Source of the DNA: Gautieria morchelliformis
Lineage: Eukaryota; Basidiomycota; Agaricomycetes; Gomphales; Gomphaceae
Direction of reading: 5' to 3'
Length of the DNA stretch: 64,000 nucleotides
NCBI GenBank assembly: GCA_015179125.1
Contig: WHVA01000276.1
Coordinates: forward strand, 62,001 to 126,000
How positions within the stretch are numbered: position 1 is the first letter of the stretch; each line of letters begins with the position of its first letter. Of the stretch, positions 24,179 through 61,795 are shown in pieces. The translations under genes and the position numbers were made by a program. Under the pieces are notes generated by a model. The model had not been told where the DNA came from, did no database searches, and saw nothing but the letters and a program-made list of their open reading frames with translations.

Positions 24179-24512
24179 CAGCTGTTTGCATTACCTAAGG
24201 CGCGCGTCACTTTTGACTCCGCGTAAACGCCCAGAACTTGCGAACATGATATCTCGACCGTTTCTCAATGAAATGGCATGAAAGTTGAATCAAAATACTC
24301 AGAAGAAAATCAGCTAGTGCACCCATGGCATATTGTTGTATGAAAATTCATGTTGGAAATCTCTCTAAAACGGCCCTTGTAGCAAGACAGTGAACGCGAG
24401 TGCTGCGAAGCTTTTGCACTTCGCAAGTCAAACAGAGCATAGTTATAGAGTATAGAACAAATTTATTGGTATTACACCATGTTCGTGTATATACAAGCCC
24501 CATTGCCGGTCT
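24179..24512 (+). repeat. Left terminal inverted repeat of T1
   Basis: Matches the reverse complement of 33367-33714 along its length with scattered substitutions and small gaps. Outer end CAGCTGTTTGCATTACC preceded by TA. Confidence 0.85.
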
Positions 24513-25316
24513 GATGGACTAATAATGTGTAGATGAAGGGCCATGGCCGTGCATATAATGAGACGATGAAAACAACTGTCGGCGCTCTGATACTTGTACA
24601 TACAAAAAGTATCAGGAGTCTGGAGAATAGCAGGTGAAGAGGCCCAGGGCACGATGGGGTCTCTCAAGTCGTGAAAGACCGACGAGTGAGGCCAATAGTG
24701 TGAACAACACAGTCCTCCAGACTCTTCAGTGCCATCGATAGCATCTGTGCTGAGGATAGACACGAGCCCTTCGACGTCCTCAGGGAGAGTCTGGCTCGGA
24801 ACACTTTTCATGAGATCAACCAATCGTAAACGGCCTGGCTGCTATGGCAGTCGAAATGCACAAAAATTAGCCCGCGCCCGCGCTAGTCATGAATCTTGTC
24901 CAGTTTGGTGTCGCGATCCTTATTGGGTTTGGCCTGTGGCTTAAACGTGGCCTCGAATTCGTCGAATGATGCCTCAAGAAGAGAATTTCAGTGCTCGAAG
25001 GCCTGGATTCCCGTTGTTCACACACTTATAATTTTTCAAGATTGCTCATGGCGCACTCAGTGAATGCACAAAAAAAAGTTTTTTGAGCAATGGAAGCCAA
25101 TTAACAGTACAAAGCATCAGACACATATCTATGTGATGAGGCAAGGATGAACACAGCGAACAGCGAGCGGCGATTGAGACCCATAGCAAGAGCTATCTAT
25201 CAGCAGCAGGCAAAGAGGGATCATATGACTTAGAAGCGATATAGAGGGGACATGCATACCTAATTGTTGACGGGTTTCAATCCCTCCTTCTTGGCATTGG
25301 GCTTGTTCCCTTTTGA
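24513..25316. other. T1 internal stretch without a confident gene
   Basis: A minus-strand open frame (24823-24443) overlaps the inverted repeat and shows no known domain. Otherwise nothing recognised. Confidence 0.3.
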
Positions 25317-25317
25317 T

Positions 25318-26644
25318 CAAGTGGCAGCATCGGACTCAAGTGCATACGAGTCAGAATCACTCAGCGTCTGACTCCTGTCTTCAGAAGGATTTTGCTGCAC
25401 ATTGAAATTTAGCGTAAGATCATCAGCACGGCACAAATAAATGCCCAGCACCTCGTGGTCGTCTTCCCCTTGATCTTCCACATCACCCTGCTCGTCCTCA
25501 GCATCACCTGCGTCATTACTGTCCACAGCCAACTCTTGTGCCTGAGCCTCTTGCAGCACAGTGGCGCGTTCTTCTCCATTTTCTTCGAGGCTCACATGGA
25601 CCTGCCAAACACAATATATGTTAGCAATTAATTATTATAATAACTAATATAATAACTAATATATACCTCTTCGTGCTGTTCCTGTCGTTCTTGTCGTTCC
25701 TGTTGTTCCTGATGGCACACGGGCACGAGCGGCCTTCCTGTATCGTTCCTTGTGCCTCTGGTAGTCGCTCTTGTTGCAAAGAATCTACGTGATCATGGCT
25801 TCGATGGGCCACGAGTTTTCGTATTGCTTCAACTCCGGGAATCGTTTCTCAACCTATGATACTGCATTAGAAAGCCCCAATAACATCATGTAGATGGATT
25901 AATTACTGAGCGCAAGATTAATGCGACTTTCTGGGGGTCTTGTTTACGCTTTCTGCCCTCAAGATGATGACTAACAACCTCGTCGCGGACTGCAGCCTAT
26001 AGGAGGTCAAAATGATCAGTAATGACCATTCATAGTACGCGTGTACGTACCCTGATGTCCAAGTATTTTGCGCCGTCGCTCTCCAAGCCCATATGTTCCT
26101 TGAGGTTATACCCTTTACTCCCGTGTTCACCTGTCCCTTTCTTTCCAGCAGCCCCGAACGGCTTAGGGATCAGGGCTCGTATCTTCTTGTCCTTACGCTT
26201 GTATTGGTGGGAGCGACTGTCACTGTCGGAAGAATCAGAATCAGATTCAGAGACTGGGCGTATGTACGTGTCAGTCTCAAGCACTTGGTAGAGTATAATA
26301 GTAGCTCAGGGTATTTGTGGGAATTTTTGGAATTTTTCTTCGTTTGCTGCTTGGGTTCACTGCCTGAAACACATAATATTGTGAAATATCTTGTCACCAC
26401 GTTAAAGGGCTCACATACCGGAAGACATTTCGAAACCCTCCGCATCGCTGCCAACTCCAGAACTTTCGGAATCATGGGCGATGACCTTCTTCTTTCAAGC
26501 GGCCTTCTTTTTGTGCATGTTACCCTTCGCATCCTCCAGCTGTTGCATGTAGAGCTTGTGGCGTTCTTTATATGAAGGACGGGGACTTGAGGTCTTCTTG
26601 GGGTTAGATTTTGCCTTGCTGGTATGTTTTGAAGCTTTGACCAT
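25318..26644 (-). pseudogene. Gene X: decayed basidiomycete hypothetical protein
   Basis: Several intron-separated blocks in order: Lys-rich start (26644 onward), an SDSDSSDSDS-rich stretch with an IPKPFGAAGK...GYNLKEHMGL-like motif (26284-26030), AAVRDEVVSHHLEG block (about 26000-25920), KRFPELKQYENSWPIEAM block (about 25850-25790), and an acidic C-terminus (25595-25318). These blocks resemble a hypothetical protein type I know from agaricomycetes, name and function unknown. Two in-frame stops (TGA near 26495, TAG near 25790) both fit a C-to-T change (CGA, CAG), so this copy is probably dead. Intron boundaries between blocks are partly unresolved. Confidence 0.5.
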
Positions 26645-27104
26645 GATGACGAAAGAGAGGGCAAGTGGTGGAAGCAGCTGGAAGAACACATGGCTCAAGA
26701 AACACATATGTCAGGAGAGAGTGAAATGTCACGTGATCTATCCGTGCAACGTGTTATGGTGTCCTGTTGATCATCTGGATGCAGGCTTCAAACTCCGATG
26801 CACCCCTCACCGCCCACAAGGCTTCATGTACATCAGTAATTAGAAAAATACCAATTAAGAGATTAAAAGAATTGTTGAGCGTATATTTTACTGTTTCTCC
26901 CGGGCACACGAAGAGGACCGACGGGGTTCTCTACGACGTTGAAAGGGAATCCCTCGACCTTTTTTTTATATACATCAAAATCCCAAAATAGTCTCCTAGA
27001 AATGTCCCTGTTATTCTGAGAACCCATGTAGAACTGATCACGAAGGTTTGGCCTATGGAGAAAAGAAGCACGGGGACAAGAGTTGCGTATATCTTAAACC
27101 ATGT

Positions 27105-27864: not shown

Positions 27865-29070
27865 ATGTCTGAATGCTTCAAGGCAACTCGTCGTCACTAT
27901 TCTGACGATCTCAAGCAGCATATAATCTACCAGCATGTGAAGTTTGGAATGACGACTGCTCAAATTGCTGAGAACTTGGACATGTCTATTCGGGTAGTTC
28001 AGAGAACCCTGCATATCTGGCAAGAAATCGGTAACGTAGTCAAAGATCCAAGGACATACGCAAAACGCGGTAAGGCTTGTTTACTTGATTCGGGCAGCGT
28101 TGAGGTATGCAACATTACTACTTTTGGACCAACAACGTATGCTAATATTATCATACATACCAGTTTATACTTGCATTACTTGAACAACAGCCCGACATTT
28201 ACTTAGATGACATCGCTGAAGAGTTGCTGGCGCAACGGAATGTCTCTGTATCGCTGTCAACTATTCAGAGGACATTGGAACTTCTTGGAGTTACTTCAAA
28301 GAAGGTGAGAGCAGCTGTTAGGTTAGAATGGAATGCAACTGACCGCTATTAGCTCTCTAAAGCAGCAGCAGAACGCTGCGAAGATGCACATCGAAGGCTT
28401 TGTTTTGCACTGGGGCATGAGCCGGCATGGCGCATGGTGTTTACAGACGAAAGTTCAGTAAACATGCTTACAACCTATCGGACCATGGGCCATGCATATA
28501 AAGGCCAACGCGCTAAAGTTCGCAGTTTCTTTCAGCGGGGAGACAGGTATGTACATGTTCGCTGATGTAGTCTTTTATTCACCGTTTATTGTAGATATTC
28601 TGTCTTGCCTGCGCTCGCAGTAGACAGCATTTTATACGCTCATGTTGTAAAAGGCTCCTTCAACGGCGCAACCTTCAAGCTCTTTATACAAGGTTTGCTG
28701 CAAAATATGAACCCTTACCCTGCCCCCAAGAGTGTTTTGATTATGGACAACTGTGCCATCCATCACGTAGATTGTATTCAGGAGAGGTGCGATGAGCGGT
28801 GTTTTTTTTTTTTATCTAGTTTTTCCTCGTATTTATCTTGATTTCAGGGGTGTAAAGCTCTACTACTTACCACCCTATTCACCTGATTATAACCCTATAG
28901 AGGAGTGCTTTTCTTATATGAAAAGCTACATTCGACGTCATGGGAAGCGGTTCAGGGCTGAGGTGGAAGCCGGTCATCGAGATCGGCCTTATCTATTTCT
29001 GTATGAAGCACTAAGTAAGGTGACAGCTCATCAGTCATGGGGGTGGTTTCATCACTCGAAATATGTGTAA
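27865..29070 (+). CDS. DDE transposase, Tc1/mariner (IS630-like) superfamily (copy D1)
   Basis: Five exons: 27865-28104, 28164-28304, 28353-28546, 28595-28798, 28848-29070 (1002 nt, 333 residues), all introns GT-AG of 48-59 nt and in frame. An N-terminal helix-turn-helix (residues about 10-60, TAQIAENLDMSIRVVQRTL) is followed by a linker helix region, then the catalytic core: first Asp in VFTDESS, second Asp in LIMDNCAIHH, and the third acidic residue in SPDYNPIEECF. Reaction: cut-and-paste of DNA at TA sites. It looks whole. It lies inside T1, tail to tail with family Y gene Y1. Copy D2 (59180-60411) shares all four intron positions. Confidence 0.9.
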
Positions 29071-30539: not shown

Positions 30540-32249
30540 CTACAACTGTGTTAACCCATGTTGTGCTGCTTTTTTACCCCTAACCTGGTCTCGAACGCTC
30601 CTAACAACGAACTGAGCATTGCCCTGGCTTAAAGAGTAAGGTGGTGCTTCAAAGAAAGCCTCGTTTTCCTGCGCAAGTTCGTCAATTGTATAAAAGTCCC
30701 GTTCAAGAAGTTGATTTGTCAAGTTGTTGAAATTACGCCTAGGGTTAGCCGCTGCAAGCTGCAGAAAAAACTCCTCGATGCTTGGGTAATCAATTGCGAG
30801 AGATAGGTCTGCACTGGGTGTTTGCCGTACCACCTGCTGTGCTTTTGCACCATTTGCACCAACCAAGCCAGCCATCCCCATCATCATGGCGGTCATAGCT
30901 TGCACAACTGCCATATCAGCAGTGGGGGCAGGGATGGCCGGGATAGCGGGGGCAATTGCCTGGGTTGGCTGAGTTACTCCAGGGTGGGATTCAGGGTCGG
31001 GTTTACGCATATGAAACTCAGCAAAGAGTTCACTGCGAGGTGGATTAGTATGGGATACACCGTCAATTCCCATTGCCTGCTCAAAAGTCAGAATACAAGT
31101 GAAAATAAAAACAGAGCCCTTACCAGTGCGGTGGCCCAACCTGACAAGTGTAGCATGTTCAATGCAATGTGCACACCGTGTTTGTTTACCTTACACCATA
31201 TGTCTGGGCCACATTTTTGACACTTGAGCAACTGCTCGAGCTTCGCATATTCACTGAGATGCTTTTCCGCTTGCTCTTGCTCTTCATCTAATCCACCTTC
31301 ATCATCCAGTGAGTCTAAATTGAGCAGCTTTTTCTTGCTGCCACACAAAGCCTTTTTCAGGGCTGCCTTAGCCGCCACACCCTTCATACTGCTCTCCTTC
31401 AACTTGTTACGAAGTGCTTCGATGTACTGGTAAAATAGTTGAGAAGGTAGGCAACTTTGATGCAAAATATGAAGCATTACCTCTTTTGGTTCAATAACTA
31501 TTTCCCCTTGTATAATTTTATCCTTTTTGCCGAGGGTCTTCACATGCTCGTGCAAACCTTGCCAGTCTTTTTCATTCTCTAAACCGATCGGAGTCCTCCC
31601 TGTTTTTTCCATTTTGTATTGGAGAATAGGCTTCTTTGGAATGTTTTGACATCCAATTGCATCGTGTAATTTTCTTAGTGCGATTTCAAATGAACAGACG
31701 AGTGGAATCGTTACTCGCGTAGATCCAGCTGAGAGACCAGATGGAACAAAAAAGGCTAGCTCTAAGTATAAGAATAGATACATCGTTATATGGGTCTTCT
31801 GATGATCTGATTTGATGGGAAACTTACCCCGATCGAGGTCTGACAGTTCCTCCTGCTTTGGTGGTCGACCCTGTCCCTTTTTTACTACAGCCACTTTGAC
31901 CTCCTTGACCTCAGATGCCAAGTCACTGTCAGATGCGTCGGATAAGTCAGATGTGGTGTTGACCTCCTGTGACCCATCTGAGATGTAGGGATGGTCCTCT
32001 TTCGAAGCCTGTGTACTGCTGTCGCTTTTGGCGGGGTGGGATTCAAGGCTTTCTAGGAGTTTCACAGTGGGGATTTTTTTTCCGTACAGGGCGACTTCGG
32101 TGAGCATCGTCATTCTCATCCAACTTCGCTGGTTCTACTGATTCGTGCTGGCCATCCACCTGAACAGGCTCATTGCAATTCTTTTTCTTTGCAGCCACAG
32201 CTTTGCGTAGGGCTGACTGCGACCGTTTGTTGCCCATGCGACTCTTCAA
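30540..32249 (-). CDS. Family Y protein (copy Y1), companion gene of T1
   Basis: Exons about 32249-31828, 31761-31481, 31426-31124, 31076-30540, introns 47-66 nt, about 513 codons. Parts: Ser/Asp/Lys-rich N-terminus with a GRPP motif; a helical domain (FEIALRKLHDAIGC...); a probable zinc site CQKCGPDIWCKVNKHGVH (C-x2-C, then C and H); an Ala/Pro/Met-rich linker; and a C-terminal helical domain starting YPSIEEFFLQLA that resembles SAM-like endings of such proteins. Function unknown. One A8 run (32074-32081) puts the two halves of exon 1 out of frame by one base, so this copy carries either a single-base change or an assembly error. Convergent with transposase D1; Y2 stands in the same relation to D2 in T2. 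Confidence 0.6.
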
Positions 32250-33714: not shown

Positions 33715-33716
33715 TA

Positions 33717-46391: not shown

Positions 46392-46846
46392 CAGCTGTTT
46401 CGGGTCCCGAAGGCGGACTTTGAAACTAGCGCTAAAAATTCATTGAAATTTTGTTTGAGCTCAAACTCGTGAACCAGGATGAGTTAAGGGCCAATATTTT
46501 GTATCATATATATACACACAGATAAATGTGATTCTATGTATGAAGGGAGCTCTCAAATAAGCCCAATGGAAATGCCATTCTGCAGCATATACGTGCATCG
46601 GCTCTTCCCAGGCAGCCACCAGCAGCCTGGGCTATATACTTTCAACAATATATTGATGAAGGGGGCTCCCCTATCTACTCACTATCTCTTAGAATCATTC
46701 AGGAAAGTTGTCTGCCTTGGCATAGAATTTTCTACACTTCATGCTTGTTGTTGACTTATTATGTCTGCATGCTGCACAGGTAAAGTATAATTTTCAGCAT
46801 ACTACACACATATCTATATTGGCTGAATTTTTGACAAGAGGAACAA
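46392..46846 (+). repeat. Left terminal inverted repeat of T2
   Basis: Matches the reverse complement of 61342-61795 over its full length with few differences. Shares only the outer CAGCTGTTT and weak similarity beyond it with the T1 ends, so T1 and T2 are different families of one group. Confidence 0.9.
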
Positions 46847-46853
46847 GTATTTA

Positions 46854-48250
46854 GCCGCCACACCACTGTGTCGGTCGCAATTTATCAGCGGATGGGTCGG
46901 CATGAACCCTTAGACCTCAAAGACAGCTGTCTCGGAGGAGTATGCTCAAGAGTAATACTCACCGGCTAGATATCTATGGAACTCCAAAGACTCCTCAACA
47001 GGGTGACCCAGGAGTGGCTGAGCCCCTTTGGTGGCAGACTGATGGTAGACTTGACGATCGTCAGGTTCACCATTTGTGTGTGCGGTTCCTGTGCACCGTA
47101 CGTGCATACGGTGGATGATGGACATTAATTGTACGTGGATACTGTGACGGTGCACATGCACCGTACATGCCTACGGCAGACAGTGCACGGGAACCGCAGG
47201 CACGAACGGTGCAGCTATTTTGATATTTTTGGTTTTGACGTGTACTGTGAAGGGCTGCAGCAACCCATGTCGTTGTCCCCTGCCAGTGCGAAAAACACTG
47301 GCTTCCACGGTCCAGTATTACATTCCAGCCGGTTCAGTGCCAAAGTAGACGGTATCATGAGGGAAATCCCAGAATCACCACCCTCAGAGAAGGACACCAT
47401 GTCGATTGTGGTCGTCAGCAGTGGAAAATCAGCCCAAGAGTCTGTCGTTCAGATGCCAGCCTAGCCATGGCAGGTGCTGATTCTTTCACAACAGCTCTGC
47501 ATACCTAGCGAGCAAAGGCCAAAAAGTATCGATGGTCTTCGAGACTGCTGATGCCATCCTTGCAGTCACCAGTCCGCACCCAGATTTCATCTGGAAAAGC
47601 CGGTACGGTTGGTACCGATTCACTCACAGAGATTTTAGTTATCATATTCCATATGCTGCGGTCGATTTTCCTCCCAAGCCAAGCAGTATGAAGCGTCTGT
47701 CATGCATAAGCACACTGCATACGTGGGGACGTCATAGCGAAGTGCTCACTCGAGACGCGTGTGTAGCTCAATATGTGCAGACAGTATGGTTAAAAGCTGC
47801 CGTGGGTCGATTTGTGCGTTCGAGCATGGGAACCACCGTATCCACGTACAGTGCACGGGAACCGCACGCACGAACGGTGCAGGTGAACCATCTGCCCTCT
47901 GCACATGTGGTTCACGTGCACTGTCTGCCGTAGGCACGTATGGTGCACGTGCACCGTCGCAGTATCCACATACAGTTCACATCCATCGTCCGCCGTATGC
48001 ATGTATGGTACACGGGAACCACACGCACGAACGGTGAGCGTGACGATCGTCAAGTCTACTGTCAGTCTGCCACCAAAGGGGCTCGGCCACTCCCGGGTCG
48101 CCCTGTCGAGGAGTCTTTTGAGTTCCATAGATATCTAGCTGGTGAGTATTACTCATGAGCATACTCCTCTGAGACAGCTGTCTTTGGGGTCTAAGGGTTC
48201 ATGCCGACCCATCCGCTGATAAATCACGACCGACACAGTGGTGCTGCGGC
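46854..48250. mobile_element. Foldback element with ~350-bp inverted arms
   Basis: 46854 to about 47210 and about 47850-48250 are inverted copies (GCCGC ends, TA on both sides at 46852-46853 and 48251-48252). Arms contain repeats of a GTGCACGTGCACCGTA-type motif. The ~640 bp centre has no coding frame I recognise. It sits next to the inner edge of T2's left inverted repeat. Confidence 0.75.
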
Positions 48251-48377
48251 TAAAAATGAAGCTGGTCAGTCCGGCTTTCCATAAGTCCGGCTTTGCATAA
48301 TTGTCAGTCACGAGTCTGTCACATGCGTGATGTGGCTCTTGCGTCATTTGCTCACCCACACTTAGCTTGGTTATACC

Positions 48378-48603
48378 ATGGCTAAGACATCCAGCAAGTG
48401 AAAGGCATCCCAAAAGGTTACTTCAAGGGCGCAGGATACACCAGATCCATCATTAGTTATACCAGGACAACACATAAGAAAACTGTCTGAGTGTGCTAAG
48501 TCAGCGGAGATTATTGTTACCAAGATGCAGGCTACTAGGGAGATTATGACCCTATCTGATGTCCCGGAAGGCTCTGAACCAGAGGACGAGGAGGCAGTGT
48601 CCA
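48378..48603 (+). pseudogene. Family Y gene Y2, first exon part (interrupted by element C)
   Basis: Starts at the ATG at 48378 and reads into the GTCCA target duplication of element C. The frame continues right after C at 56693, so C landed in this exon. An in-frame TGA follows the seventh codon (CGA to TGA type). See the second part at 56693-58873. Confidence 0.6.
48599..48603. repeat. Target-site duplication of element C (left, GTCCA)
   Basis: GTCCA before the 5' LTR is repeated at 56693-56697 after the 3' LTR. Confidence 0.9.
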
Positions 48604-49152
48604 TGTAAGAACCCGGCCTTTGGCCGGTTACTTACCGGTATAACTTTCTTCCAAGCCCAAGCCTTGTGATACTCGTGCCGAGTACATATGATTCTTATCC
48701 TGCGCCCGAGCCCGAGCCTGAGCTAGAGCTCATATCTGACCTTGATCCCATGCCCGTATCCCCTTAGTTACTGATTCCGCTCCATCATGCATCATTCACA
48801 TATTACCTCGCCCTGACCTTGCCCTGATCTCCACTAATATGTTCGCCCCTGACTCATACCCTCGCCCCATATATAAACCCTCCTGTATGCATTCCTACTC
48901 CTCAGTCTGAAAAACAACTACCGTATAACTTCGATCCCTAGCTAGTTTCTAAGCCTCGCCTCTTAAGCCAAACCTCGCCTCTTATTCGTTTGCCTCCAAA
49001 GTTGGGACTCATGCTTAGGGTCGGCGCAGCACATAAGCTGAAGCCTAGTCCCTCTCTGACTTCCCCTTCCAAACCTCGCCTCATAACCCCGGACCGTACC
49101 TCAGGTTTTGCTCCCGACCTCGGTCAACCTTACGACAGATCATATCGTAACA
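48604..49152 (+). repeat. 5' LTR of element C
   Basis: TG...CA ends; atatataaac TATA region at about 48869; predicted RNA start at about 48904 (agtctgaaaa). Confidence 0.92.
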
Positions 49153-49154
49153 GT

Positions 49155-49165
49155 ATTTTCAGACT
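49155..49165 (+). promoter_or_regulatory. Self-priming type primer binding site of element C
   Basis: attttcagact two bases inside the LTR; ten of its bases (ttttcagact) pair with agtctgaaaa in the LTR at the predicted RNA start. Confidence 0.7.
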
Positions 49166-49194
49166 GCTTACACCCTACATACCCCTTTTCTTCA

Positions 49195-50425
49195 CTATGT
49201 CCATGATAACTCGTTCTCGCACCCTTCGAGGTATATCAGAACAACGACGTTTCTCGGAAGCCCCCGACGATTGACCACCGTCCCCGGGGATACCCCTCGC
49301 AGACCCCGCCGAGCCTAGTAACAAAGGCAAAGGTAGGGCTGACACCGGTGACCCTTCAGGTGATCCAGGTAATGGCTCTGGGGGTTCTGACAACGATCGG
49401 GACCTCCCCAATCTGCCGCCCGAGGACCTCGGTGACCTCGAGGACAACGAGCTTATGCGTCGGGTGTTCATCAAACTCGCGAAACCTCGCGAGTCCGAAG
49501 CACGAGCCAAGGTCAAGGAACCGGATAGTTATGATGGTACCGACCAGGCCAAGCTTCGCACCTTTTATCCTTCAATGCGTACACAACTTCCGACATCGTC
49601 CCACAGCGTTCAAGACTGGGGCCCCGAAGGTGCAGTATGCTATTTCTTACCTGTCCAGGTCAGCTCTACAGTATTTCGAGCCGGCGATCCTTGGCGAAGT
49701 CCAACCTGAGACAGGTTGGCTCAACGACTGGGACAGCTTCAAGGCTGAGCTCGAGCTCAACTTCGGTCCATACGACAACGCTGCCCAAGCCGAGATTGAC
49801 CTCGAGAAGATCGTTATGAAGGAGCACCACAAGGCCGCGCGATTCTTTATCGACTTCGCCCGAGCTTCGACTCGGACTCAGTGGAACGACGCGGCCCTCC
49901 GACACTTCGCCTACAAGGGCTTGGCCAAATGAATCAAGGACAACTTACTTCACTTCCCTCGATTCCGCAGCCTCGCCGAGCTTAGGAACTTCGTGCTGGA
50001 ATGCGACAGCCGTTACTGGGAGCGTAAGGAATATGACGCCATGATCAATGGTCGTAGCTCCCAGCCTGCACGCGCCACTAATCAGTCCAGCAGCAATGCC
50101 ACTAACAACAACCAGTCTTCCAGCGGTTCCAACAACAATAAGAACCGCAACAAGACTACCAACAATGGCAAGGGTTCCAACAACAACTCTTCAAACAACA
50201 AGAGCCAGCCCGACATATCGAGCAAGCTCGGGAAGGATGGCAAACTCCTTCCCAAGGAACGCCAATGTCGGGTCGACCAGGGCCTTTGTCTGCTTTGCGG
50301 CACCAAAGCCACATTGTCAAGGACTGCCCGAAGAACAAGTCTACCAGCGGTAGCGGTTCTAAAGGTCGGGCAGCGAAGACCCCTAACGAGGGGACTTCGG
50401 CGTCCATTATGGAGGTGAAAAAATA
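49195..50425 (+). pseudogene. gag: Element C gag
   Basis: Diverged copy of element A's gag with the same order: acidic N-terminus, capsid-like core, Asn/Ser-rich linker, zinc-knuckle region. Broken. Confidence 0.8.
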
Positions 50426-50476
50426 GGTAGCAACCTCGGAACCACACGATCCGAGGATTGCGGTAACCTCACCCAT

Positions 50477-52960
50477 GTGCTCAGACTCAGCGCCGCTTCT
50501 CATTCATTGTCCAAAGATTCCCTTAATGTAGATCTAACCTCGCCTTCGCTCCCCAACCTCACTTTTGTTGCATTAGTTGACTGCGGGTCCTCAGATTGTT
50601 TTATTGAATCCAGACTTGTCCAGAAGTACTCTATGCCTGCTTATCCTGTCTCTCCTATACCCTTGAAACTATTTGACGGTAGTACTAACACTACCATTAC
50701 CCAAGCTCTAGACCTCTGTATCTGCTTTCCGACCGGCGAACAACAATGGGTTACCTTCTACGTAACCTCGCTCGACTCGCGTTGCTCGATGGTACTTGGC
50801 CACAACTGGCTCACCTGCTACAATGCGTCGATTGACTGGGTATTGGGCAGTATTACTTTCAAGACCATCGACCTAACTACGACTCCAGCGACCACGGCGA
50901 CGTCAGCCCGCTCAGCTTCGGCTACGACTTCGACCTTGCCTACGGCATCTTTGACCTTGCCTCAGAACTCGCCTCCGAAGTTGCAAGCACCGCTCGTTTC
51001 CCTAATCAATGCATCCGCTTTCATGCGCACGTCTAGATTGGAAGGGTGTTACGCATCGAGATTTCCACTAAGTCGGAACTGGAAAGGACAGCGGCTTCAA
51101 CTTATAGGTTGCACCCCCAATGAACTATCGTCCTAAGTATTGAACCAAAGGTTGGTCGGAACTTGAGTCGGAACTGAGGCGGAAGGCGGAAGGAAGGCAG
51201 AGAGAGACTGAGATCTTGCTAGACTTGCTGTACTAAGAACAGGAGATGGAGCGAAGGAAATCAAGTATCGAAGATGATTATCTGATTGCAGAATAAGAGA
51301 CATACATGACAGGCTTTTATACAAAGAGCTGAGAGAACAGGTAATGATATGGTACTAAGCAAATTCCGGGGGACGCGGAAGTCGAGTAGACAATGCGTGG
51401 GAACTAACTAATTGGGAACAATGGGACTACAAGGGGGGTTCAAGGTAAGGTAGAACAATGGCAAAGAACAAGGGGTCGGGAAAACATATCTGACAATGAA
51501 ACACAAGGAGGGCCAGACATATGGTCTTGATGAATGGTGAGGTGGGTCCAGTGGGTCCGAGTAATAGAGTCGAAACAACAAGTGAAATGTACAAGGGGAG
51601 GAATGTCGGAAATATCGGAGGGGTGGAAGGTGTTGCGGAAATATTGGAGGGGCTGAAGGTTTTGCGGAACTGAGGGTCGGAAGTCGGAAATGAACGGTCG
51701 TAACAAAGGGTCCGAAGTGTTTCAGCTCAATCTGGCCTCGCCTGAGCTCCTCGCCCGAGGAGCAACATCGGGAGAAAGCTCTTCCGAGCTTTCTGAGAAC
51801 GTTAAAAAACATGTTCCTGAAGTATATCACGAATTTGCAGATGTGTTCAGCAAGGCACACGCTGACACTCTAGCCCCCCACCGACCCCACGATATCAAGA
51901 TCAACCTTGAAGAAGGGACCTCGCCGCCTATCGGTCCCATCTACTCCCTCTCAGTTTCTGAACTCAAAGCACTTCGCGAGTTCATCGACAAGCACTTGAA
52001 CATCGGTTTCATCTGACCTTCGTGCTCGCCTCATGGTGCACCGGTATTGTTTGTCTGCAAAAAAGATGGCTCACTTCGGTTGTGTGTCGACTTCCGAGGT
52101 TTAAACAAGATCTTGAAAAAGGATCGGTACCCATTACCATTGATTGCTGACTTACTTGATGCTCCAAAGAATGCTCGCATCGATACGAAGATTGACCTCC
52201 ATCACGCTTACCACCTCGTAAGGGTGGCCGAGGGTGACGAATGGAAAACCGCCTTCAGGACTCGCTACGGGTCTTTTGAATGGTTGGTTATGCCATTTGG
52301 TCTCACTAATGGCCCTGCTGCTTTCCAGAGATTCATGAACGAGATTTTCGCCGACCTTTTGGACGTTTGTGTGGTGGTATACTTGGATGACATTCTAATC
52401 TACTCCAGTGACCCCTCCAAACATGTTGAACATGTCAAGGAAGTCTTGCGACGACTGCGACTCAACAACCTTTCGCCAAAGAAGACAAATGCGAGTTTCA
52501 TCGCGACTCGGTCAAATTCCTCGGCTACATACTCTCTCCCGAGGGCCTCACTATGGCGGATGACAAGGTAAAGGTCATTCAAGACTGGCCTGAACCTCGC
52601 AAAGTTCGCGACATCCAGTCTTTCCTCAGTTTCGCCAGCTTCTACCGACGTTTCATTCACAACTACTCCGACATCACCATCCCTCTCACCTGACTCACCC
52701 GCAAGGGTACCCCTTGGAACCTTTCTGAGGATTGTCGACAAGCTTTCAACCTGTTGAAGAAGGCGTTCACTACCGCTCCTATCCTTACCCACTGGATTCC
52801 TGACCTTCCACTAATCATAGAGACTGATGCTTCAGATTATGCCTTAGCGGCAATCTTATCGTTGCGAACCTCGGAAGGCGAACTTCACCCCATCGCTTTC
52901 ACTCCTGCACATTCACCTCTACTGAGCTCAACTACGATGTGCATGACAAAGAGCTCCTAG
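50477..52960 (+). pseudogene. pol: Element C protease and reverse transcriptase (split by a solo LTR)
   Basis: Protease with VDCGSSD near 50580. The region is interrupted by the solo LTR at 51047-51705. Reverse transcriptase from about 51900 with YLDDILIYS at about 52380-52405. Broken. Confidence 0.85.
51047..51705 (-). repeat. Solo LTR of another gypsy family, inside element C
   Basis: 659 bp with TGTTACG...CGTAACA ends and an AAGGG duplication (51042-51046; 51706-51710). On the minus strand it has GTATAAAAG near 51325, then TGTATG and a predicted start around AATCAGATAATC, the same core-promoter layout as the LTRs of A and B. The homologous stretch in A (around 9397) is uninterrupted, which fixes the borders. 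Confidence 0.88.
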
Positions 52961-54216
52961 CAATTTTTGAAGCGTTTCAACGCTGGAGACACTACCTCGA
53001 GGGCTCTGGCGACCCTGTCGACGTTATCACCGATCACAAGAACCTCGAATACTTTTCAACAACGATGCTCTTGACCCGTCGACAAGCTCGGTGGTCAGAA
53101 TACCTCTCCCAATTCAACCTCGCCATCCGTTTCCGACCTGGTCGCCTTGGAACGAAACCTGACTCTCTCACTAGACGATGGGATGTCTACCTTAAAGAGG
53201 GGAATAGCGACTATGCCACCATAAACCCACAGAACCTACGGCCAGTGTTTGCTCAACACCAGCTGGCATCATCCCTTAAAGCTACTAACCTCGCTCCCAT
53301 CATACTCAGAGCCACTTCGCTGCTTGATACTGAGCAGATCCGAGCTGACATGCTAACGAACCTCCCCTCAGACCCCATAGCCAAGTCGCACCTCGGCTTG
53401 GGTGATGACCCGAGGTGGACCACAGACCCCGAGGGTTATCTCAAGCTTGACAACCGAACCTATGTTCCAGCGGCCCAAGACCTTCGACTTCGCATCCTGC
53501 AATACAAGCACGATCATATCCTCTCGGGACACTTCGGGGTCAACAAGACCTTGGAGCTGATCCGACGAGACTACACTTGGCCAGGGATTAGATCCTTTGT
53601 CAAGGAGTATTGCAAGACGTGTACCACTTCTATGCGAAGCAAGCCGCAACGTCACAAGCCCTATGGTCTCCTTAAACAACTTCCAGTTCCAGAGAAGCCT
53701 TGGAATTCCATCTCTATGGATTTCATTGAGCAGCTTCCCCCTTCATCCGAGTTCACCTCCATACTAGTGATTGTTGACCGCTTCACTAAGCAGGTTATCT
53801 TCATTCCAACCACCGACAAGATAACCTCGCAAGAGCTCGCTCACCTCTTCGTCCTTCATGTCTTTTCCAAGCATGGAGTCCCCTCGCACGTCACCTCGGA
53901 CAGGGGTTCTGAGTTCGTCTCGCACTTCTGGTGTTCTCTAGGGAAGGCCTTGGACATGCGGTTGCATTTTACCTCAGGATATCATCCCGAGGGTGACGGT
54001 CAAACCGGGCGTGCTAACCAGACCTTGGAACAGTACCTCAGGATATACTGCAACTATCAACAGTCCAATTGGGCTTCACTCCTTCCCCTCGCCGAGTTTG
54101 CTTACAACAATGCGCCTAGCGCAACCACCGGCATATCCCCATTTTTTGCTAATAAGGGTTACCACCAGAACCTCGCAGTCCACCCCGAGCGTGACCTCGC
54201 CTCGGCACGAGCTTGA
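52939..54216 (+). CDS. int: Element C RNase H and integrase
   Basis: One long open frame: RNase H end (DHKNLEYF), connector, HHCC zinc-binding region (GHFGVNKT...CKTCTTS), catalytic core with MDFIEQLPP, TSDRGSEF and the GYHPEGDGQTGRANQTLEQ-like block. The best-preserved integrase of the three elements, though one of the zinc-binding positions looks altered. Confidence 0.88.
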   Translation: MHDKELLAIFEAFQRWRHYLEGSGDPVDVITDHKNLEYFSTTMLLTRRQARWSEYLSQFNLAIRFRPGRLGTKPDSLTRRWDVYLKEGNSDYATINPQNLRPVFAQHQLASSLKATNLAPIILRATSLLDTEQIRADMLTNLPSDPIAKSHLGLGDDPRWTTDPEGYLKLDNRTYVPAAQDLRLRILQYKHDHILSGHFGVNKTLELIRRDYTWPGIRSFVKEYCKTCTTSMRSKPQRHKPYGLLKQLPVPEKPWNSISMDFIEQLPPSSEFTSILVIVDRFTKQVIFIPTTDKITSQELAHLFVLHVFSKHGVPSHVTSDRGSEFVSHFWCSLGKALDMRLHFTSGYHPEGDGQTGRANQTLEQYLRIYCNYQQSNWASLLPLAEFAYNNAPSATTGISPFFANKGYHQNLAVHPERDLASARA

Positions 54217-54222
54217 GACTTT

Positions 54223-54798
54223 GTGGTTGACCTGGACGAGCTACACCAGGAACTTCGCCGTGCCATCCTCGAGGCTCAGAAGACCTACCAAGCCTCGGCC
54301 GATGTTCGCCGCAAACCCGCTCTTGATTTCCAAATTGGATCCCTCACCTTTGTAAAGGCACAGTACTTCCGAACAACTCGGCCTACCAAGAAGCTCACCG
54401 AGAAGTTTTTGGGTCCTTTTGAGATCATTTCCCAAGCAGGTACTCACTCCTTCACCCTTCGACTTCCAGAACACATGCCTTCAGTCGATCCAGTATTCCA
54501 CGTATCCATGCTCGAACCAGCCTCACCCAACACCATCCTGAACCAAGTCCAGCCTCCTCTGCCCCCAGTCATCATTGACGGCAAGCCCGAGTTCAATGTC
54601 TCGGAGATCCTCGACTCCAAGATCGATAATAGACGGAAGAGCTGCAAACTGCTGTATCTTGTTAGGTGGACTGGTTAGGAAGGTACCGATGAAGAAACCT
54701 CGTGGATCCTCGCTTCCGAGCTTGATCATGCCTCGGAGCTGGTCACCGATTTCCACGAGTCTTATCCGGGCAAGCCGGGACCTTTGACTGCTCTATGA
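54223..54798 (+). pseudogene. Element C integrase tail and chromodomain
   Basis: Integrase C-terminus, then a chromodomain with LYLVRWTG and ETSWIL-like blocks, ending near 54798. Broken. Confidence 0.8.
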
Positions 54799-54908
54799 TC
54801 GTTTCCTTGTTTAACCCCCATGAACCTAGTAGTTAGATAACAAAATCCCCTCACAACTGAACAACAAAAACCAATAAAATCCAAGAAATTCCATTATTCC
54901 CTTAGTAG

Positions 54909-55890
54909 TTACTCCAACATCCTCATATCCTCTCCCTCGCTCTCCTCGCTACCCTCGCCTGACTCCTCCTCATTACTACTGCTACTTCGCTCCACCAGAC
55001 CCCCATGTCCCCCATAATCCGCCAAGTCCCTCGCCCCCTGCATCCGCTTCAAGTAATTCCGCCTCCTCCTTATCCTCATGAACTCCAGATTCGCCCGGTT
55101 CATCCTATCATTCGCCGCCCTAAACTCCCCCAACAACTCACACACCCTTTCCCCAACCTCGCCAACCTTCTGTCCCACGTCCCTCACCGCCGCTATCAAC
55201 TCCCTCATCTCCGCACTTCGCTCCGACCTTTTCGTCTTTTTGTCTTTCTTCGCCCTCCGACCTTCCACCTCGGTTTCCTTCCCCCCACTATGCCTCTCTC
55301 CCTCTGACCCCTTACCTGTATCCTCACTCAAACTCGCTTCCATCCGTTCCATCCTCGTCTCAAGGTTCCTCTCGACCCAGTCGCTTGAGTCGTCATCCTC
55401 CTCGTCCCGAACCTTGGCCTCTTTCCTCGGCCTCGGTCCGTCCTTGGCATCCTCGCTCCTCACTCGCTTCTTGCCCATGGCACTCGCCTAACCTTTTCCT
55501 GGGGTCGCCTTGCTGCAACCACCATGGGCTATACTACAACCCAAGGAGCGTGTCCTGCACCACACGCAGGCACCCTGGTCGGCAAGGCCGAAGTCAAGGC
55601 TAACGGCCTGAAGGCATGTATAGTCATGCTCTTTGCAGCGCGCGCACCTCGCCTCGGCCTTGGTCGCGAGTTGCCACTCACGAGGTCCCCCGTCGGCGAG
55701 CTTGTACCCGTATAGGGACAAGTCGGTAGGGTGGTACGAGAATAACATGCGTTTATACTGTACAAGTCAGCAGCGTTCATGACCAGACAACAACGGTACT
55801 CACCTTCTTGCCGTTGGGCCCTTCCTGCCACGGTTTCCGCATATCTATGGCCCCCGCATCCTCGATGGGTCGCGGGACCACGTCGGGTCA
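54909..55890 (-). other. Antisense accessory region of element C with Zn2Cys6-like cluster
   Basis: Opposite to gag-pol, between chromodomain and 3' LTR. In the single open frame 55748-55488, six cysteines at residues 35, 38, 45, 61, 64 and 71 give C-x2-C-x6-C-x15-C-x2-C-x6-C (bases 55646-55536), close to the fungal binuclear Zn cluster. The block before it is YHPTDLSLYGYKLADGG. Frame 55478-54909 holds a Lys/Glu-rich coiled coil with RRRRNYLKRMQ and an acidic end. The same order is seen in element A. An old copy, not expected to be whole. Confidence 0.6.
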
Positions 55891-56144
55891 AACCTCGGGC
55901 ATAACCTCGCCCGAGGGACTGTCCTCCTCAGAGAGGGGGGTCTGGTCGAACGCGTTGTTCGCGCTGTGTTCGTCGATAGCGGCACTTGGGTTTGCTGCCT
56001 CCTACCCACCCTTTTATCTAACCTCGGCTACGATTAAGCTTTGCCTTTCCGGCGACTTAACATCGGGCCGGGATCTAGATTCGAGGATAGGCGAACCTTG
56101 TTCATATTACGGCCTCGAGGGTCTCGGCCATAAGGAGGGGATAC

Positions 56145-56692
56145 TGTAAGAACCCGGCCTTTGGCTGGTTACTTACCGGTATAACTTTCTTCCGAGCCCG
56201 AGCCTTGTGATACTCGTGCCGAGTACATATGATTCTTATCCTGCACCCGAGCCCGAGCTGAGCTAGAGCTCATATCCGACCTTGATCCCATGCCCGTATC
56301 CCCTTATTTACTGATTCCGCTCCATCATGCATCATTCACATATTACCTCGCCCTGACCTTGCCCTGATCTCCACTAATATGCTCGCCCCTGACTCGTACC
56401 CTCGCCCCGTATATAAACCCTCCTGTATGCATTCCTACTCCTCAGTCTGAAAAACAACTACCGTATAACTTCGATCCCTAGCTAGTTTCTAAGCCTCGCC
56501 TCTTAAGCCAAACCTCGCCTCTTATTCGTTTGCCTCCAAAGTTGGGACTCATGCTTAGGGTCGGCGCAGCACATAAGCTGAAGCCTAGTCCCTCTCTGAC
56601 TTCCCCTTCTAAACCTCGCCCCGTAACCCCGGACCGTCCCTCGGGTTTTGCTCCCGACCTCGGTCAACCTTACGACGGATCGTATCGTAACA
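56145..56692 (+). repeat. 3' LTR of element C
   Basis: Matches 48604-49152; preceded by the purine tract AAGGAGGGG and followed by GTCCA. Confidence 0.92.
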
Positions 56693-58873
56693 GTCCATCG
56701 CAAGCCGAAAGGAAACATCTGACTACGACCCCATGGCAGCTCCATCAGAGGAATCCAACTCAGATGATGAGGCATCAAACGTCTCTATTGATTCCGAGCC
56801 TGTGAAGGCCAAGGTAGCGGCCAAACCTGCATCGAAGCCTTCTATCAAAAAGGCTTCGAAGGGGTCTCAACAAGTAACACGTGAGTGCAGCCCATTTTCT
56901 ATATGCCCCATTTTGTACTAATTGTAACTAGATATACGTTTCCACGTACCTTACAAGGATTCCGATGGGCAATAATACAAACAATGGGTCTCGCCTTCAG
57001 TCAGTGACACGCTTGAAGAAGTAACACAGGCACTCTATTCTATTATTGGCTGCACCGATATTCACAAGTCTAATCTCCTGGCCCTGTCTTGTCAGTTCTC
57101 AAAGGACCCGCTGAAAGTTAAGTATAAGCTTTCAGAGGACAATTGGGACATTATCAAGAAGGAATATCAAACTGAAGTGCAGAAAAAGCGGGACGATGAA
57201 AAGATCGATATCTCACTCCCCCCTCAGGTAAGCAAGCGACTTTGTCTTTTTATCTTAGACTAGGACTAATCAAAAACTAATATAATGTTATCTCAGTTCC
57301 TGGATAATCTCCTTGCCTGGGCAGAAAGTCAGGGTCTATCAAGGAGCTCCTGGGTGCAAAGAACTCGATGGAGACGTTACTGGGATACGTAGTGACGACA
57401 GGCAGGCTGAAATCAGCGTTCGGTGATGTTTCCCCGTCACTCACTTAAAAATGTATAAGATAACTAGCTTGACAGGGATGCTAGAATACAAGACGACAGA
57501 CAGCATCGTTGTGCCATCACGCGACCAAAACCCTCAAAACACCCCACTCACACCGCTTGCGCAGCGACGCGTACCGACTCGTCGCAGCAAGACCAAGAAG
57601 AAGTCCGTGAACCCCTCTTTACCTTCAACTGCGGCGCTCCCACACATCGTGCCAGCCCGCCCCGGCGGCCGAGCACATAGAAAGCCAGACCACCCACACA
57701 CTAGAACAACCAACAGGGGAACGGGAGTACTTACCTCAAAAGGGTGGGGTGAGAAACGGCTCAAGGAGTCGGGCTGGCGGGGGGCAGGGAGCTCATCGTC
57801 AGTGCACACGCCCGCTCGAGGACACAGAGGGATGGGAGCCCTAGGGAGCGAGAGGGAAGGCCCACCCAATTATTAGTACAACGCATGTAGCGACCACCAT
57901 AGGCCTAGCCTGGGGTTGATTAAAATGACATAAAATAAAATAAAATAAAAAATTCTCCTTGCGTCTAAAAAACTCCAAAAGGCCAAAAACGCTACCGTTT
58001 CCACAAAACATGGAAAGGTAATGGGTTCGAAGAACCTTTATTCAGCTAATGATGAGTACATTGATGAAGAGGATCGGCTCGACATGGATGCACACTACTT
58101 CCCAAGCTATCAGATGCTTGAGGCCAGGGTGCGTAAAGAGCTTAGCAAGTGCCAGCTCCACAAGGGCGAGCTCTGCAAAATAAACAAGCACAACAAGCAT
58201 CAAAGGATTTCTAACGTCCTGCTCCGGGAACGGGTGGAAGCCTTGGTGCATCACAATATGTTGTTATATTTGCTTTATTCATCATGTTTATCTACAGCAA
58301 AAAAATGAGCCTAACGTCACTATGACCATTCCAACAAAATCCCCGGCATTTGAATTATTTCACTTTGATATCGGCAACCCTCTTGAAAGGCCGGCTATGA
58401 CACGGAAGGACCGACACCAAGTTACCCAGGGCCCTGCGAATCAGCAGCCAGCACCCACCACTCCAGTGATCAATATTGTCATTCCTTTGGGTCGGAAGCT
58501 CAAGAATCTGCTTCAAGATGACTCTTCATCCCCCGCTGCCTCTCAAGGTAGCAAATTGAAGCGGGTTTATCATTCGCCATCGCCATCTGAAGCCAACCAA
58601 TACGGTGATTTCAACCAGACCGTCGGGGCTTGGCTGGGTTCCATATCTAACACCCCTGATGCGAGACATATTGATCTTGAGGATCTCCATAATAGGCTTG
58701 CTGAACATGGGTTCATTGATGTTCCGCTCATATTTCTCAACGGGTTACCTCGGGGCGAGCTCAAGACTACAATTGGACTCAACCTGGTCACATATAGCTT
58801 CATATGCATGAGCCTGGAACAGCTCTTTGAAAAGCCATTGCAGGGTAGGGATAAGTGGGCAAAATTCATGTAG
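56693..58873 (+). pseudogene. Family Y gene Y2, remaining exons
   Basis: Continues the exon cut by element C. Blocks in order: Ser/Asp/Lys-rich part (56700-56880); helical block with ALYSIIGCTDIH (about 57000-57230), matching FEIALRKLHDAIGC of Y1; a short exon near 57300; an unrelated GC-rich segment (57440-57980); a block with CKINKHNKH (about 58185), matching CKVNKHGVH of Y1; and the C-terminal domain (58322-58873). It has in-frame stops (for example TAA near 56972) and an altered Cys site, so it is decayed. Function unknown. Convergent with transposase D2, whose last exon ends at 59180. Confidence 0.6.
57440..57985. other. GC-rich segment ending in an (AAAAT)n run within Y2
   Basis: Breaks the Y2 homology between the block ending near 57400 and the one starting at 58021. 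It ends with repeats of AAAAT at about 57930-57955. The A-rich tail hints at a retroposon, but no target duplication or pol III boxes are clear. It may instead be a long decayed intron. Confidence 0.35.
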
Positions 58874-59179: not shown

Positions 59180-60411
59180 CTAAAATTCGGTACACAGATA
59201 ACTTGCATGTCCCATCCACCCTTGAGCCTTCTCTGGCGATATCGTTGCTAAGGCCGAGTTTATGAGATAATAAAGCATGGCAAAGTCTTTACTTTCCACT
59301 GCTGCTCTGAAATCTGTACTGTGACGCCGAATTACAGACTTGACATACGCAAAAGCTTCTTCGATAGGATTTAGATCAGGAGAATATGGTGGCAAATAAT
59401 ACAAGCGGACACCCCTTATAAAATGAGTTAGTTATTCACAATATACCAATAGAACTGATGAAAACTTACTTCGTTTCGCAGAGTGGTGCGATGTCATCTA
59501 AATGGTGTATTGCACAGTTATCCATAACCAGCACACTGCGCGGCTGGGGCCATGGGTTCATGTGCTCCAAGAGTTCTTCTATATAGCCAACAAAGGCATC
59601 ACCATCATACGCACCTTCCCGAATATCAGTATGGATAATGCCTTGCATGCAGAGGGCCGGAAGCAATGAAATCCTTTGAAAACATTAGCAGCATCTAATG
59701 AAAACATGGAAGTGTACATACCCTGGCCCATGAACAAATTTTGCACTAATTCGCGCACGCTCCCCTTTGTAAGCCCATCCATACAGCCTGTATGTAGTGC
59801 TGCAGTCGATCCGGCTTTCATCAATAAAAACAAGCCGTTCTGGTGATTCGGCACCAATCTGAGAACGATATCGGGCCCGTGAGTGTTCATTCCGTTCGGC
59901 CGCTGATTTGGAAAACTGAAAATAGACTGATAAGGTTAGATATTTCTAGTTAGCGGTGCCACAAACCCGTTTCCTCGTAAGGCCAAGTTCAATCAACGTG
60001 TCCCATATAGTTGACCTCCCAACAATAACACCATGGAGCTGCTGAAGCTCAACTTGCATCTCATCCAGATAGAGGTCAGGGTGTGATTCTAGAAGGACAA
60101 GCAAGAACTTCAAGTAAACAGCATCATTAGACTATATTGACTGTCAAATAAAGTATATTTACCTCGATTTCATGCTCTGTCATGACCCTTCTCTTTCTTT
60201 TTGGCTCCTGCTGGTTTGGTGAGACAACTTCACCAGTTGTCTTCCACCAATACAGTGTGCTCTCGACAGCGCGTTGTGACATGTTGAGGTTGCATGCGAT
60301 CTGAGCGATTCGGTAGTGAAGGGTGTATTTTTGATAGACAACAAGCTCCCGGCGATCAGATGTATACATCCTGCGACAGGGAAGTTCAGCAGGTATTACC
60401 CTTCGAGGCAT
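59180..60411 (-). pseudogene. DDE transposase, Tc1/mariner (IS630-like) superfamily (copy D2)
   Basis: Five exons on the minus strand: 60411-60163, 60107-59967, 59917-59722, 59673-59470, 59414-59180; introns 48-55 nt at the same places as in D1. Start chosen at MPRRVIP, which aligns with D1's start. Helix-turn-helix (RIAQIACNLNMSQRAVES), then catalytic blocks VFIDESR, LVMDNCAIHH and SPDLNPIEEAF are all present. Exon 3 is 196 nt against 194 in D1: a 2-bp insertion (CACAC run near 59881) shifts the frame, so this copy is probably inactive although otherwise complete. It is the presumed former transposase of T2. Confidence 0.88.
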
Positions 60412-60694
60412 GAGGGGTAGGTTTGCAGAATGGTCACATGATGTGACATCCTTTACCCACACTTGTAAATGCAGCCACTCAACGGTCCCCATCTTCGCAG
60501 GTTTTCTTGCAATGTCAGCTATATGTCATGCTAATTCTACTCTTCCATTTACAGACCATCTGACTTTGGGATATCTCAGGATTGCACAGAAGTACGCCCA
60601 ATACTCAGCCCGGAACATTCCACACGTTTGACAAATTTTCAACTGCAAGATATATACTTGAAGGGCACAATCATAATGTCAACTCATTCATCTG

Positions 60695-61335
60695 ATGCTT
60701 CCCCTCATTGTTTCTGCTGATGATGACAGACAGATCAAACTTTGGAGGCTGAGCGAAACCAAGGCTTGGGAAATCAACACCTGCCGTGGACATTTCAACA
60801 ACATCTCTGGTGCTCATTTCCACCCTCAACAGGAACATACTCTGTCCGTCAGAGAGGACAAGACTATATGTGTTTGGGAGATGGGCAAGAGCACAGCCCT
60901 TCAAACCTTGGACACAAGCATGATTGATTCTGGGTTATGGAATGTCATCCAGAGCTCAATTCTTTTGCTGCAGGTGTGTAAATTCGTTGTGTGGTATATG
61001 TCATTGATGTGCTGCAGCTCATGATAACAGTCTCATTGTATTCAAACTCGAGCACGAGCGCCCTGTGTTCATGCTTCATCTTGACAACCTATATTACACC
61101 CAGGGAACAATATGTCCGACAGTATGATCTGAAAATGGACTCGGACGTAGGAGTACTCAGCATATGGAAGCTTGGCTATCAGTATATTCAGCCACAAATG
61201 CTCAGTTTCAATACCACTGAACACACCCGCGTACCGCCACCACTGGCACTGAGCTTGAAGGTGGAGATGTCGCTGACATGGGCCTGCCCCAAGAGCTTGA
61301 GATTTGGGGAGCAACTTCACCCACTTTCAGAGCTG
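60695..61335 (+). pseudogene. Captured fragment of coatomer alpha subunit (alpha-COP)
   Basis: The reading [33 protein letters not shown] and [12 protein letters not shown] matches the N-terminal WD40 propeller of alpha-COP, a conserved COPI coat protein. Further blocks ([17 protein letters not shown], then EQYVRQYDLKMDSDVGVLS and QYIQP) follow in other frames up to about 61200. It has no start, many breaks and stops right next to T2's right inverted repeat. A host gene piece picked up by T2 is the simplest reading; the intact gene is not in the window. Confidence 0.82.
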
Positions 61336-61341
61336 ACACAT

Positions 61342-61795
61342 TGTTCCTCTTGTCACAAATTCAGCCCATATAGATATGTGTGTAGTATGCTGAAAATTAT
61401 ACTTTACCTGTGCAGCATGCAGACATAATAAGTCAACAACAAGCATGAAGTGTAGAAAATTCTATACCAAAGCAGACAACTTTCCTGAATGATTCTAAGA
61501 GATATTGAGTAGATAGGGGATCCCCCTTCATCAATATATTGTTTAAAGTATATAGCCCAGGCTGCGGGTGGCTGCCCGGGAAGAGCCGATGCATGTATAT
61601 GCTGCAGAATGGCATTTCCATTGGGCTTATTTGAGAGCTCCCTTCATACATAGAATCACATTTATCTGTGTGTATATATATGATACAAAATATTGGACCT
61701 TAACTCATCCTGGTTCACGAGTTTGAGCTCAAACAAAATTTCAATGAATTTTTAGCGCTAGTTTCAAAGTCCGCCTTCGGGACCCAAAACAGCTG
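61342..61795 (-). repeat. Right terminal inverted repeat of T2
   Basis: Reverse complement of 46392-46846; ends AACAGCTG followed by TA. Confidence 0.9.

What the first reader, a model, noticed from the sequence alone, without database searches (positions are those of the whole stretch)
24179..61795. Two TA-bounded transposons carry the same convergent gene pair: DDE transposase plus family Y protein
T1 (24179-33714) and T2 (46392-61795) each have long inverted ends that start CAGCTGTTT and sit exactly between TA dinucleotides, the target of Tc1/mariner elements. Each holds an IS630/mariner-type transposase and, tail to tail with it, a gene of one otherwise unassigned family (helical domain, a Cys-x2-Cys...Cys...His site, SAM-like end). 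The inner parts of the ends are diverged between T1 and T2, so this is not one recent duplication; the shared plan points to a conserved two-gene transposon. Standard Tc1/mariner elements have one gene and are under 3 kb. The companion could help transposition, choose targets, or be repeated cargo.
Basis: partly seen in the sequence, partly recalled or inferred. Interest (0 to 1): 0.82.

Follow-up and report, generated by a model that had tools for sequence, protein, structure and literature searches.

The report
Two-gene fungal jumping element family
A fungal genome holds many jumping DNA elements of which most that were examined carry, besides the usual cut-and-paste enzyme, a second facing gene for an unusual protein; the two genes have diverged in parallel, so the second one probably serves the element itself, although what it does is untested.

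Summary
Confirmed and extended. T1 and T2 are real insertions: both ends read TA|CAGCTGTTT, and junction-spanning empty sites of equal length, with a single TA, exist elsewhere in the host genome for both (7 of 13 sites queried). Fifteen further inward end pairs were read and one rejected; of the 16 elements kept, T1 and T2 included, 16 have a Tc1/mariner-group transposase and 15 have gene Y convergent with it. Families with other end sequences share TTTnnnnTACnTAAGGCG (189 genome sites, control 0). Of 182 Y loci taken from capped lists, 73 have a listed transposase within 6 kb, 70 convergent; shifted control mean 2.3. Transposase and Y trees have the same family-level topology; Y shows purifying selection. 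Y is predicted as a PB1 fold, a Cys/His site and a SAM-like end, with no Pfam family. Exceptions: family I and element C287 lack Y; family J is not convergent. Best reading: a two-gene Tc1/mariner lineage whose Y is an element-encoded accessory protein; its function is inferred.

The parts
24177..24178 (.). T1 left TA (target-site copy)
   Evidence: empty sites
24179..24431 (+). T1 left terminal inverted repeat (family E, CAGCTGTTTGCATTACCTAAGGCG)
   Evidence: a further T1-like end at C10:5465 (97% over 1513 bp)
27865..29070 (+). T1 transposase, five exons, DDE_3, DD34E
   Evidence: open reading frame after splicing
30543..32237 (-). T1 gene Y (PB1-like fold, C-x2-C...C...H site, SAM-like end), convergent with the transposase; 3' limit approximate, splicing not verified
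   Evidence: copy 97% alike in DNA at C659, annotated there as hypothetical protein P0001
33462..33714 (-). T1 right terminal inverted repeat
33715..33716 (.). T1 right TA
46390..46391 (.). T2 left TA
46392..46846 (+). T2 left terminal inverted repeat (family C, CAGCTGTTTCGGGTCCCGAAGGCG)
46850..48254 (.). foldback (inverted duplication) inside T2; complex relation to C295
   Evidence: I3
48378..58873 (+). T2 gene Y, interrupted by inserts, with a stop codon (broken copy); outer limits approximate
48604..56692 (+). nested Gypsy-type LTR element (LTRs 48604-49152 and 56145-56692, 97% alike, TSD GTCCA) inside T2's Y
57316..57954 (.). further insert of about 0.64 kb in T2's Y, absent from C295 (limits approximate)
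59180..60411 (-). T2 transposase, DDE_3, DD34E, convergent with Y; splicing not verified
61341..61795 (-). T2 right terminal inverted repeat
61796..61797 (.). T2 right TA

Best explanation
T1 and T2 belong to a diverse lineage of DNA transposons of the IS630/Tc1/mariner group that carry two genes, mostly convergent, between long inverted ends: a DD34E transposase that recognises the ends and inserts at TA, and Y, a protein of the element itself. SHOWN by sequence: borders, TA duplication, inverted ends, both genes in most elements examined, convergent layout in most, parallel descent of the two genes, purifying selection on Y. INFERRED: cut-and-paste movement (from the transposase family), and that Y is an accessory factor of the element rather than passenger cargo. 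Y has a predicted PB1 fold and a SAM-like end, two kinds of domain known (recalled) for protein-protein assembly, around a Cys/His site, so the mechanism I think most likely is that Y assembles into chains or bridges on transposase-bound ends and helps to pair the ends of these large elements. Confidence: two-gene transposon about 0.95; Y serves the element about 0.7; end-pairing scaffold in particular about 0.35.
Against: ITm elements usually carry one ORF (PMC8533490, passage), so a helper is not generally needed. Family I (C347, 4.7 kb) has the transposase and no detectable Y; C287 has none. In family J (C226, C382) Y and transposase are not convergent and lie 6.4 and 7.1 kb apart. 109 of 182 Y loci had no listed transposase within 6 kb. 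No experiment; DNA binding by Y not tested. No exact repeat of 9 or more bases inside the T1 or T2 left end that would suggest arrayed binding sites. For the youngest pairs the transposase itself is near neutral (dN/dS 1.06 for T1-C659, 0.93 for T2-C295). The Foldseek matches of the Y model are weak: none at E 0.001 or below, best 0.0066. Selection on Y would also fit a regulatory role.
Confidence: 0.65

Rival explanations
1. Y is an element-encoded anti-silencing or expression regulator, not part of the transposition machinery: it keeps the element expressed in a genome that silences repeats.
For: Parallel descent and selection on Y fit any element-serving role; an AT-hook-like RGRPP in P0001 and P0002 (seen; one of 8 Y sequences has a Pfam AT_hook hit at E 0.047) would suit DNA or chromatin binding; other transposon classes have such proteins (VANC of Hiun, recalled).
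Against: No Pfam match that would name a regulator; no expression or methylation data here; family I exists without Y.
Confidence: 0.2
2. Y is passenger cargo or a captured host gene carried along without a role in the element.
For: Family I and C287 lack Y; J has another layout; 109 of 182 Y loci lacked a listed transposase within 6 kb; Y is also in Ramaria and Sphaerobolus, context unknown.
Against: The same topology for both genes across eight families and selection on Y since synonymous saturation mean long retention in the element; repeated capture would break the match.
Confidence: 0.1
3. The layout is a coincidence of nested or neighbouring repeats in a repeat-rich genome.
For: The stretch between T1 and T2 is multi-copy, T2 holds nested inserts, and one of 15 further end pairs, C182, was a palindrome and not an element.
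Against: Empty sites; 15 of 16 elements with the same layout; 70 of 73 adjacent pairs convergent, 73 against 2.3 in the shifted control.
Confidence: 0.02

Closest known systems
IS630/Tc1/mariner (ITm) transposons in general
   Same: TA target duplication, inverted ends, HTH plus DDE_3 catalytic domain, DD34E spacing; the one PDB sequence match of T2's transposase at E 0.01 or below is Sleeping Beauty transposase, E 9e-4.
   Different: Usually one ORF (PMC8533490, passage) and 1-5 kb (PMC2874221, passage); here two genes in 15 of 16 elements, and 3.9-9.5 kb in 13 of 16, 13-15 kb in 3.
Ciliate Tec and TBE elements
   Different: Three ORFs; [quoted passage not shown] TBE1 target ANT and telomeric repeats in the ends. 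Y has no Pfam kinase or recombinase match, and none of 16 elements has C4A4 or A4C4 in the outer 600 bp.
PIF/Harbinger, Mutator and En/Spm two-gene elements (recalled, not compared here)
   Same: A second element-encoded protein beside the transposase.
   Different: Other transposase superfamilies and target sites; partner proteins of other kinds.

Membership tests
IS630/Tc1/mariner superfamily | TA target-site duplication | tested here: met
   Junction-spanning empty sites for 7 of 13 sites, T1 and T2 included; place and query have equal length (182) for T1, T2, C160, C176, C403 and differ by 1-3 bases for C133 and C153; alignments were not printed. The other 6 had no listed match, 40 candidates being scored.
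IS630/Tc1/mariner superfamily | DDE/D catalytic domain of this group with its spacing | tested here: met
   DDE_3 E 1.4e-25 (T1) and 8.6e-29 (T2); 34 residues between second D and E in 14 of 23 merged rows, T1 and T2 included; C160 gave 28, with residues missing from its merged row, and 8 rows gave no count.
IS630/Tc1/mariner superfamily | N-terminal HTH region | tested here: met
   HTH_23 above its cut-off in T1; in T2 only HTH_32, below its cut-off.
IS630/Tc1/mariner superfamily | Terminal inverted repeats | tested here: met
   aligned spans of 76-550 bp in the 16 kept elements.
Canonical one-gene Tc1/mariner element (typical layout, not defining for the superfamily) | Single ORF, 1-5 kb | tested here: not met
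   Two genes in 15 of 16; 15 of 16 longer than 5 kb, range 3.9-15.4 kb.
Ciliate TBE elements | 57 kD zinc-finger/kinase ORF; telomeric repeats in the ends | tested here: not met
   No Pfam kinase in Y; C4A4 and A4C4 in 0 of 16 elements. The 22 kD ORF was not sought.
PB1 domain (N-terminal part of Y) | PB1 fold (two strands, helix, two strands, helix, strand) | tested here: met
PB1 domain (N-terminal part of Y) | Basic or acidic (OPCA) binding surface | not tested
   Residues not mapped on the model.
SAM domain (C-terminal part of Y) | Five-helix SAM fold | tested here: inconclusive

The most novel reading that the evidence does not exclude
An ancient lineage of Tc1/mariner-group transposons, at least as old as the split of Gomphales and Geastrales, that depends on two proteins: a DD34E transposase and a PB1-zinc-SAM scaffold that polymerises to pair or place the ends of elements larger than is usual for the group, and that family I dispensed with by changing how it moves.
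Probability: 0.3. Interest if true: 0.82.

Novelty: new variant of a known kind. Interest (0 to 1): 0.68.

Why it matters
Tc1/mariner elements are known as movers that usually need only their one transposase, and some are common gene-delivery tools. A fungal lineage in which a second protein has co-descended with the transposase through eight families asks directly why these elements keep it, offers a natural with/without comparison (families with Y, family I without), and could yield a helper that lets such transposases carry larger loads. It also gives a home to a gene family that the searched sources name only as hypothetical proteins.

Tried and rejected
C182 (17.3 kb inward pair) was rejected: its flanks are a perfect inverted repeat (30/30) and it has no transposase or Y match, so the motif is not its border. 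C537 (L027, L028), with two plus-strand ends and one minus-strand end, looked composite and was left out of the element counts, although it holds Y pieces. The 15 pairs read came from the first 100 of 148 sites, the only ones listed; other listed sites (for example C58, C502) were not read as elements. C295 was left out of the empty-site query (duplicated flank and a second degenerate end beside it), and C287 and C308 were cut from the query sent, so 13 of 16 kept sites were tested.

I first took the transposase family of C237 (H) to lack Y or to have it in tandem (of five partly fetched H copies only C237 showed Y, in tandem). Later lists show convergent Y for C186, C323, C841 and C237 beyond what I had fetched, and an extra Y piece in C237; C663 is not among the rows listed. 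The complete H copies C156 and C429 are convergent.

I first read the outward pairs of TACAGCTGTTT as another kind of element; C143 and the C90 and C58 ends showed a family (G) whose end is TACAGCGCTTTG and which has the motif inside the repeat. C143's left border lies just outside what I fetched (listed at 72109).

Sub-terminal repeats in the T1 and T2 left ends: no exact repeat of 9, 10 or 12 bases, two 8-mers in T2. The PDB sequence search with the Y profile gave one chance-level match, E 0.56. Pfam gave no family for Y.

Circularity to note: the Y profile was built from sequences of six elements it was then run on (T1, C295, C160, C356, C176, C143) and from P0001 of C659, so detection there is by construction; the others are independent. 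The motif was derived from the data before it was counted. The lists were merged by hand from the printed rows, which were capped for (312, 166, 389 and 205 matches in all); I did not recheck them row by row. The two J pairs, over 6 kb apart, are not counted there. The dN/dS pairs share elements and are not independent.

Papers: ten searches in the open library. For 'PB1 domain' + 'SAM domain' + transposon + transposase, for three of Tc1, mariner, TAAGGCG, Ramaria and for Sphaerobolus stellatus with transposable element, Tc1 and mariner no paper was found; among those listed I saw no title or abstract start that describes such an element in fungi. Subscription papers and repeat libraries were not searched, so this is no proof of novelty. 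PMC4724952, PMC7325037, PMC8533490, PMC2874221 and PMC7550596 were seen as passages only.
Full report
Where it is. The window is bases 62001-126000 of contig C311 of a 122 Mb, 1113-contig assembly. Contig lengths given for proteins found by search (244997, 403843, 356621, 331366) equal those of C143, C382, C537 and C659, and these proteins are labelled Gautieria morchelliformis, so the host is that fungus (Agaricomycetes, Phallomycetidae, Gomphales). PMC7550596 (passages) counts it with ectomycorrhizal species; its held main text has no Tc1 or mariner.

The observation. Beyond the TA the two sides are unrelated (8 and 9 of 30 bp). Each element holds a DDE_3 transposase and, convergent with it, a Y gene. 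T1's transposase stays open through four GT-AG introns. T2's great length is due to nested inserts: an LTR element with TSD GTCCA at 48604-56692, a piece of about 0.64 kb near 57316-57954 and a foldback. Its family mate C295 is 7.0 kb and 96-97% alike in the longest shared blocks.

Insertion borders. I joined the flanks of 13 of the 16 elements around one TA and searched the host genome. Seven of 13, namely T1, T2, C133, C153, C160, C176 and C403, have matches of 96-99% that run through the junction over (almost) the whole 182 bp; place and query are of equal length for five of them, T1 and T2 included, and differ by 1-3 bases for C133 and C153. T1's site is empty at C399:106496-106677 and C222:35935-36116, T2's at C222, C293 and C271. 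For the other six nothing was listed, but only 40 candidates were scored. A diverged empty copy of T2's site also lies in the window near 62.8 kb, in the opposite arm of the older inverted repeat into which T2 inserted. This is direct evidence for the borders and the TA duplication.

A family of families. TACAGCTGTTT occurs 148 times in the genome against 36 for the backward control. Of 15 further inward pairs read, C182 is not an element. The 14 others, with T1 and T2, make 16 elements in families A (5), B (6), C (2), D (2) and E (1) by end sequence, with aligned ends of 76-550 bp. Transposase was found in 16 of 16 and Y in 15 of 16, convergent in 15 of 15; C287 lacks Y. Families G (CAGCGCTTTGCAGTACGTAAGGCGG), H (CACCCGTTTGCAGTACCTAAGGCG), I (CACCTGTTTGCAGTACGTAAGGCG) and J (CAGCTCTTTGCATGACATAAGGCG) have related ends. 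The pattern TACANCNNTTTNNNNTACNTAAGGCG, made from them, has 189 sites against 0; families A, B, C and J depart from it at one or more places. G (C143), H (C156, C429) and the second E copy C659 are convergent as well. I (one copy read, C347) has only the transposase. In J (C226, C382) the two genes lie 6.4 and 7.1 kb apart and are not convergent; between the two copies the transposase block is inverted relative to Y, and the stretches between were not read.

Genome-wide association. From the printed rows of five searches I merged 182 Y loci and 146 transposase loci. 73 of 182 Y loci have a listed transposase within 6 kb: 70 convergent, 2 tandem, 1 divergent. Shifting Y by 20-80 kb gives 2.3 on average, 6 at most. 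71 of 146 transposase loci have a listed Y. Four of the five lists were cut, so these are lower bounds.

Common descent and selection. Over 21 elements the transposase and Y distance matrices correlate at 0.96; over one representative per family (8) at 0.64, p 0.0026 by permutation. Trees of the two proteins, midpoint-rooted, show the same family-level groups AB, CD, GH, EJ and ABCD against EGHJ (lowest support 0.70, for GH in the Y tree). Between A and B synonymous sites are saturated while Y dN is 0.32-0.37 and transposase dN 0.19-0.21 (3 pairs). Within families Y dN/dS is 0.31-0.75 in 11 of 11 pairs, lower than the transposase value in 10 of 11; the transposase value is near 1 for T1-C659 and T2-C295 (simple counting method, stops dropped, pairs not independent). 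So Y has been kept as a protein, together with the transposase, over a long time.

How it may work. The ends and the DD34E transposase suffice to explain cutting and TA insertion. Y, built of two assembly-type domains, most likely helps the element; pairing of distant ends by a Y assembly is my preferred mechanism, with silencing control as the main rival. No step of Y's action is shown.

Known or new. It has the tested defining features of the Tc1/mariner group. The closest layout in print that I saw is that of ciliate Tec and TBE elements, with extra ORFs and DD34E, but their partner proteins are of other kinds. In the open library I found no paper with PB1 domain, SAM domain, transposon and transposase together. 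I rate it a new variant of a known kind.

Noticed in passing
window 34000-36000: The stretch between T1 and T2 is multi-copy in the genome (long copies, 85-97% alike, on C154, C399, C222, C113, C204, C846 and others); C222 carries both the T1-empty and the T2-empty site about 14 kb apart.
   Followed up: partly
window 45840-46066 and 63073-63344: T2 sits between the arms of an older, diverged inverted repeat.
   Followed up: partly
window 9877-10918 and 17346-18387: Long diverged inverted arms (70-73%) about 7 kb apart in the left part of the window.
   Followed up: no
window 25250-26700 (-): T1 holds a further acidic/basic open stretch beginning MVKASKHTSKAK between its left end and the transposase; whether other families have it was not tested separately.
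   Followed up: no
L043 (C347:45050-50000): Family I: 4.7 kb element with a related end and transposase but no detectable Y, a natural comparison for what Y does.
   Followed up: partly
C226:224000-237000 and C382:90000-103500 (L038-L041): Family J copies are 95-97% alike in two blocks, but the transposase block is inverted relative to Y between them.
   Followed up: partly
C182:333388-350681 (L025, L026): A long inverted repeat whose arms run on past TACAGCTGTTT with 30 of 30 flank bases matching; not an element of this family.
   Followed up: no
L017 (C295:87700-97600): C295 is flanked by a repeated TAATATTGATGCTACGGCT and a second, degenerate end beside it.
   Followed up: no
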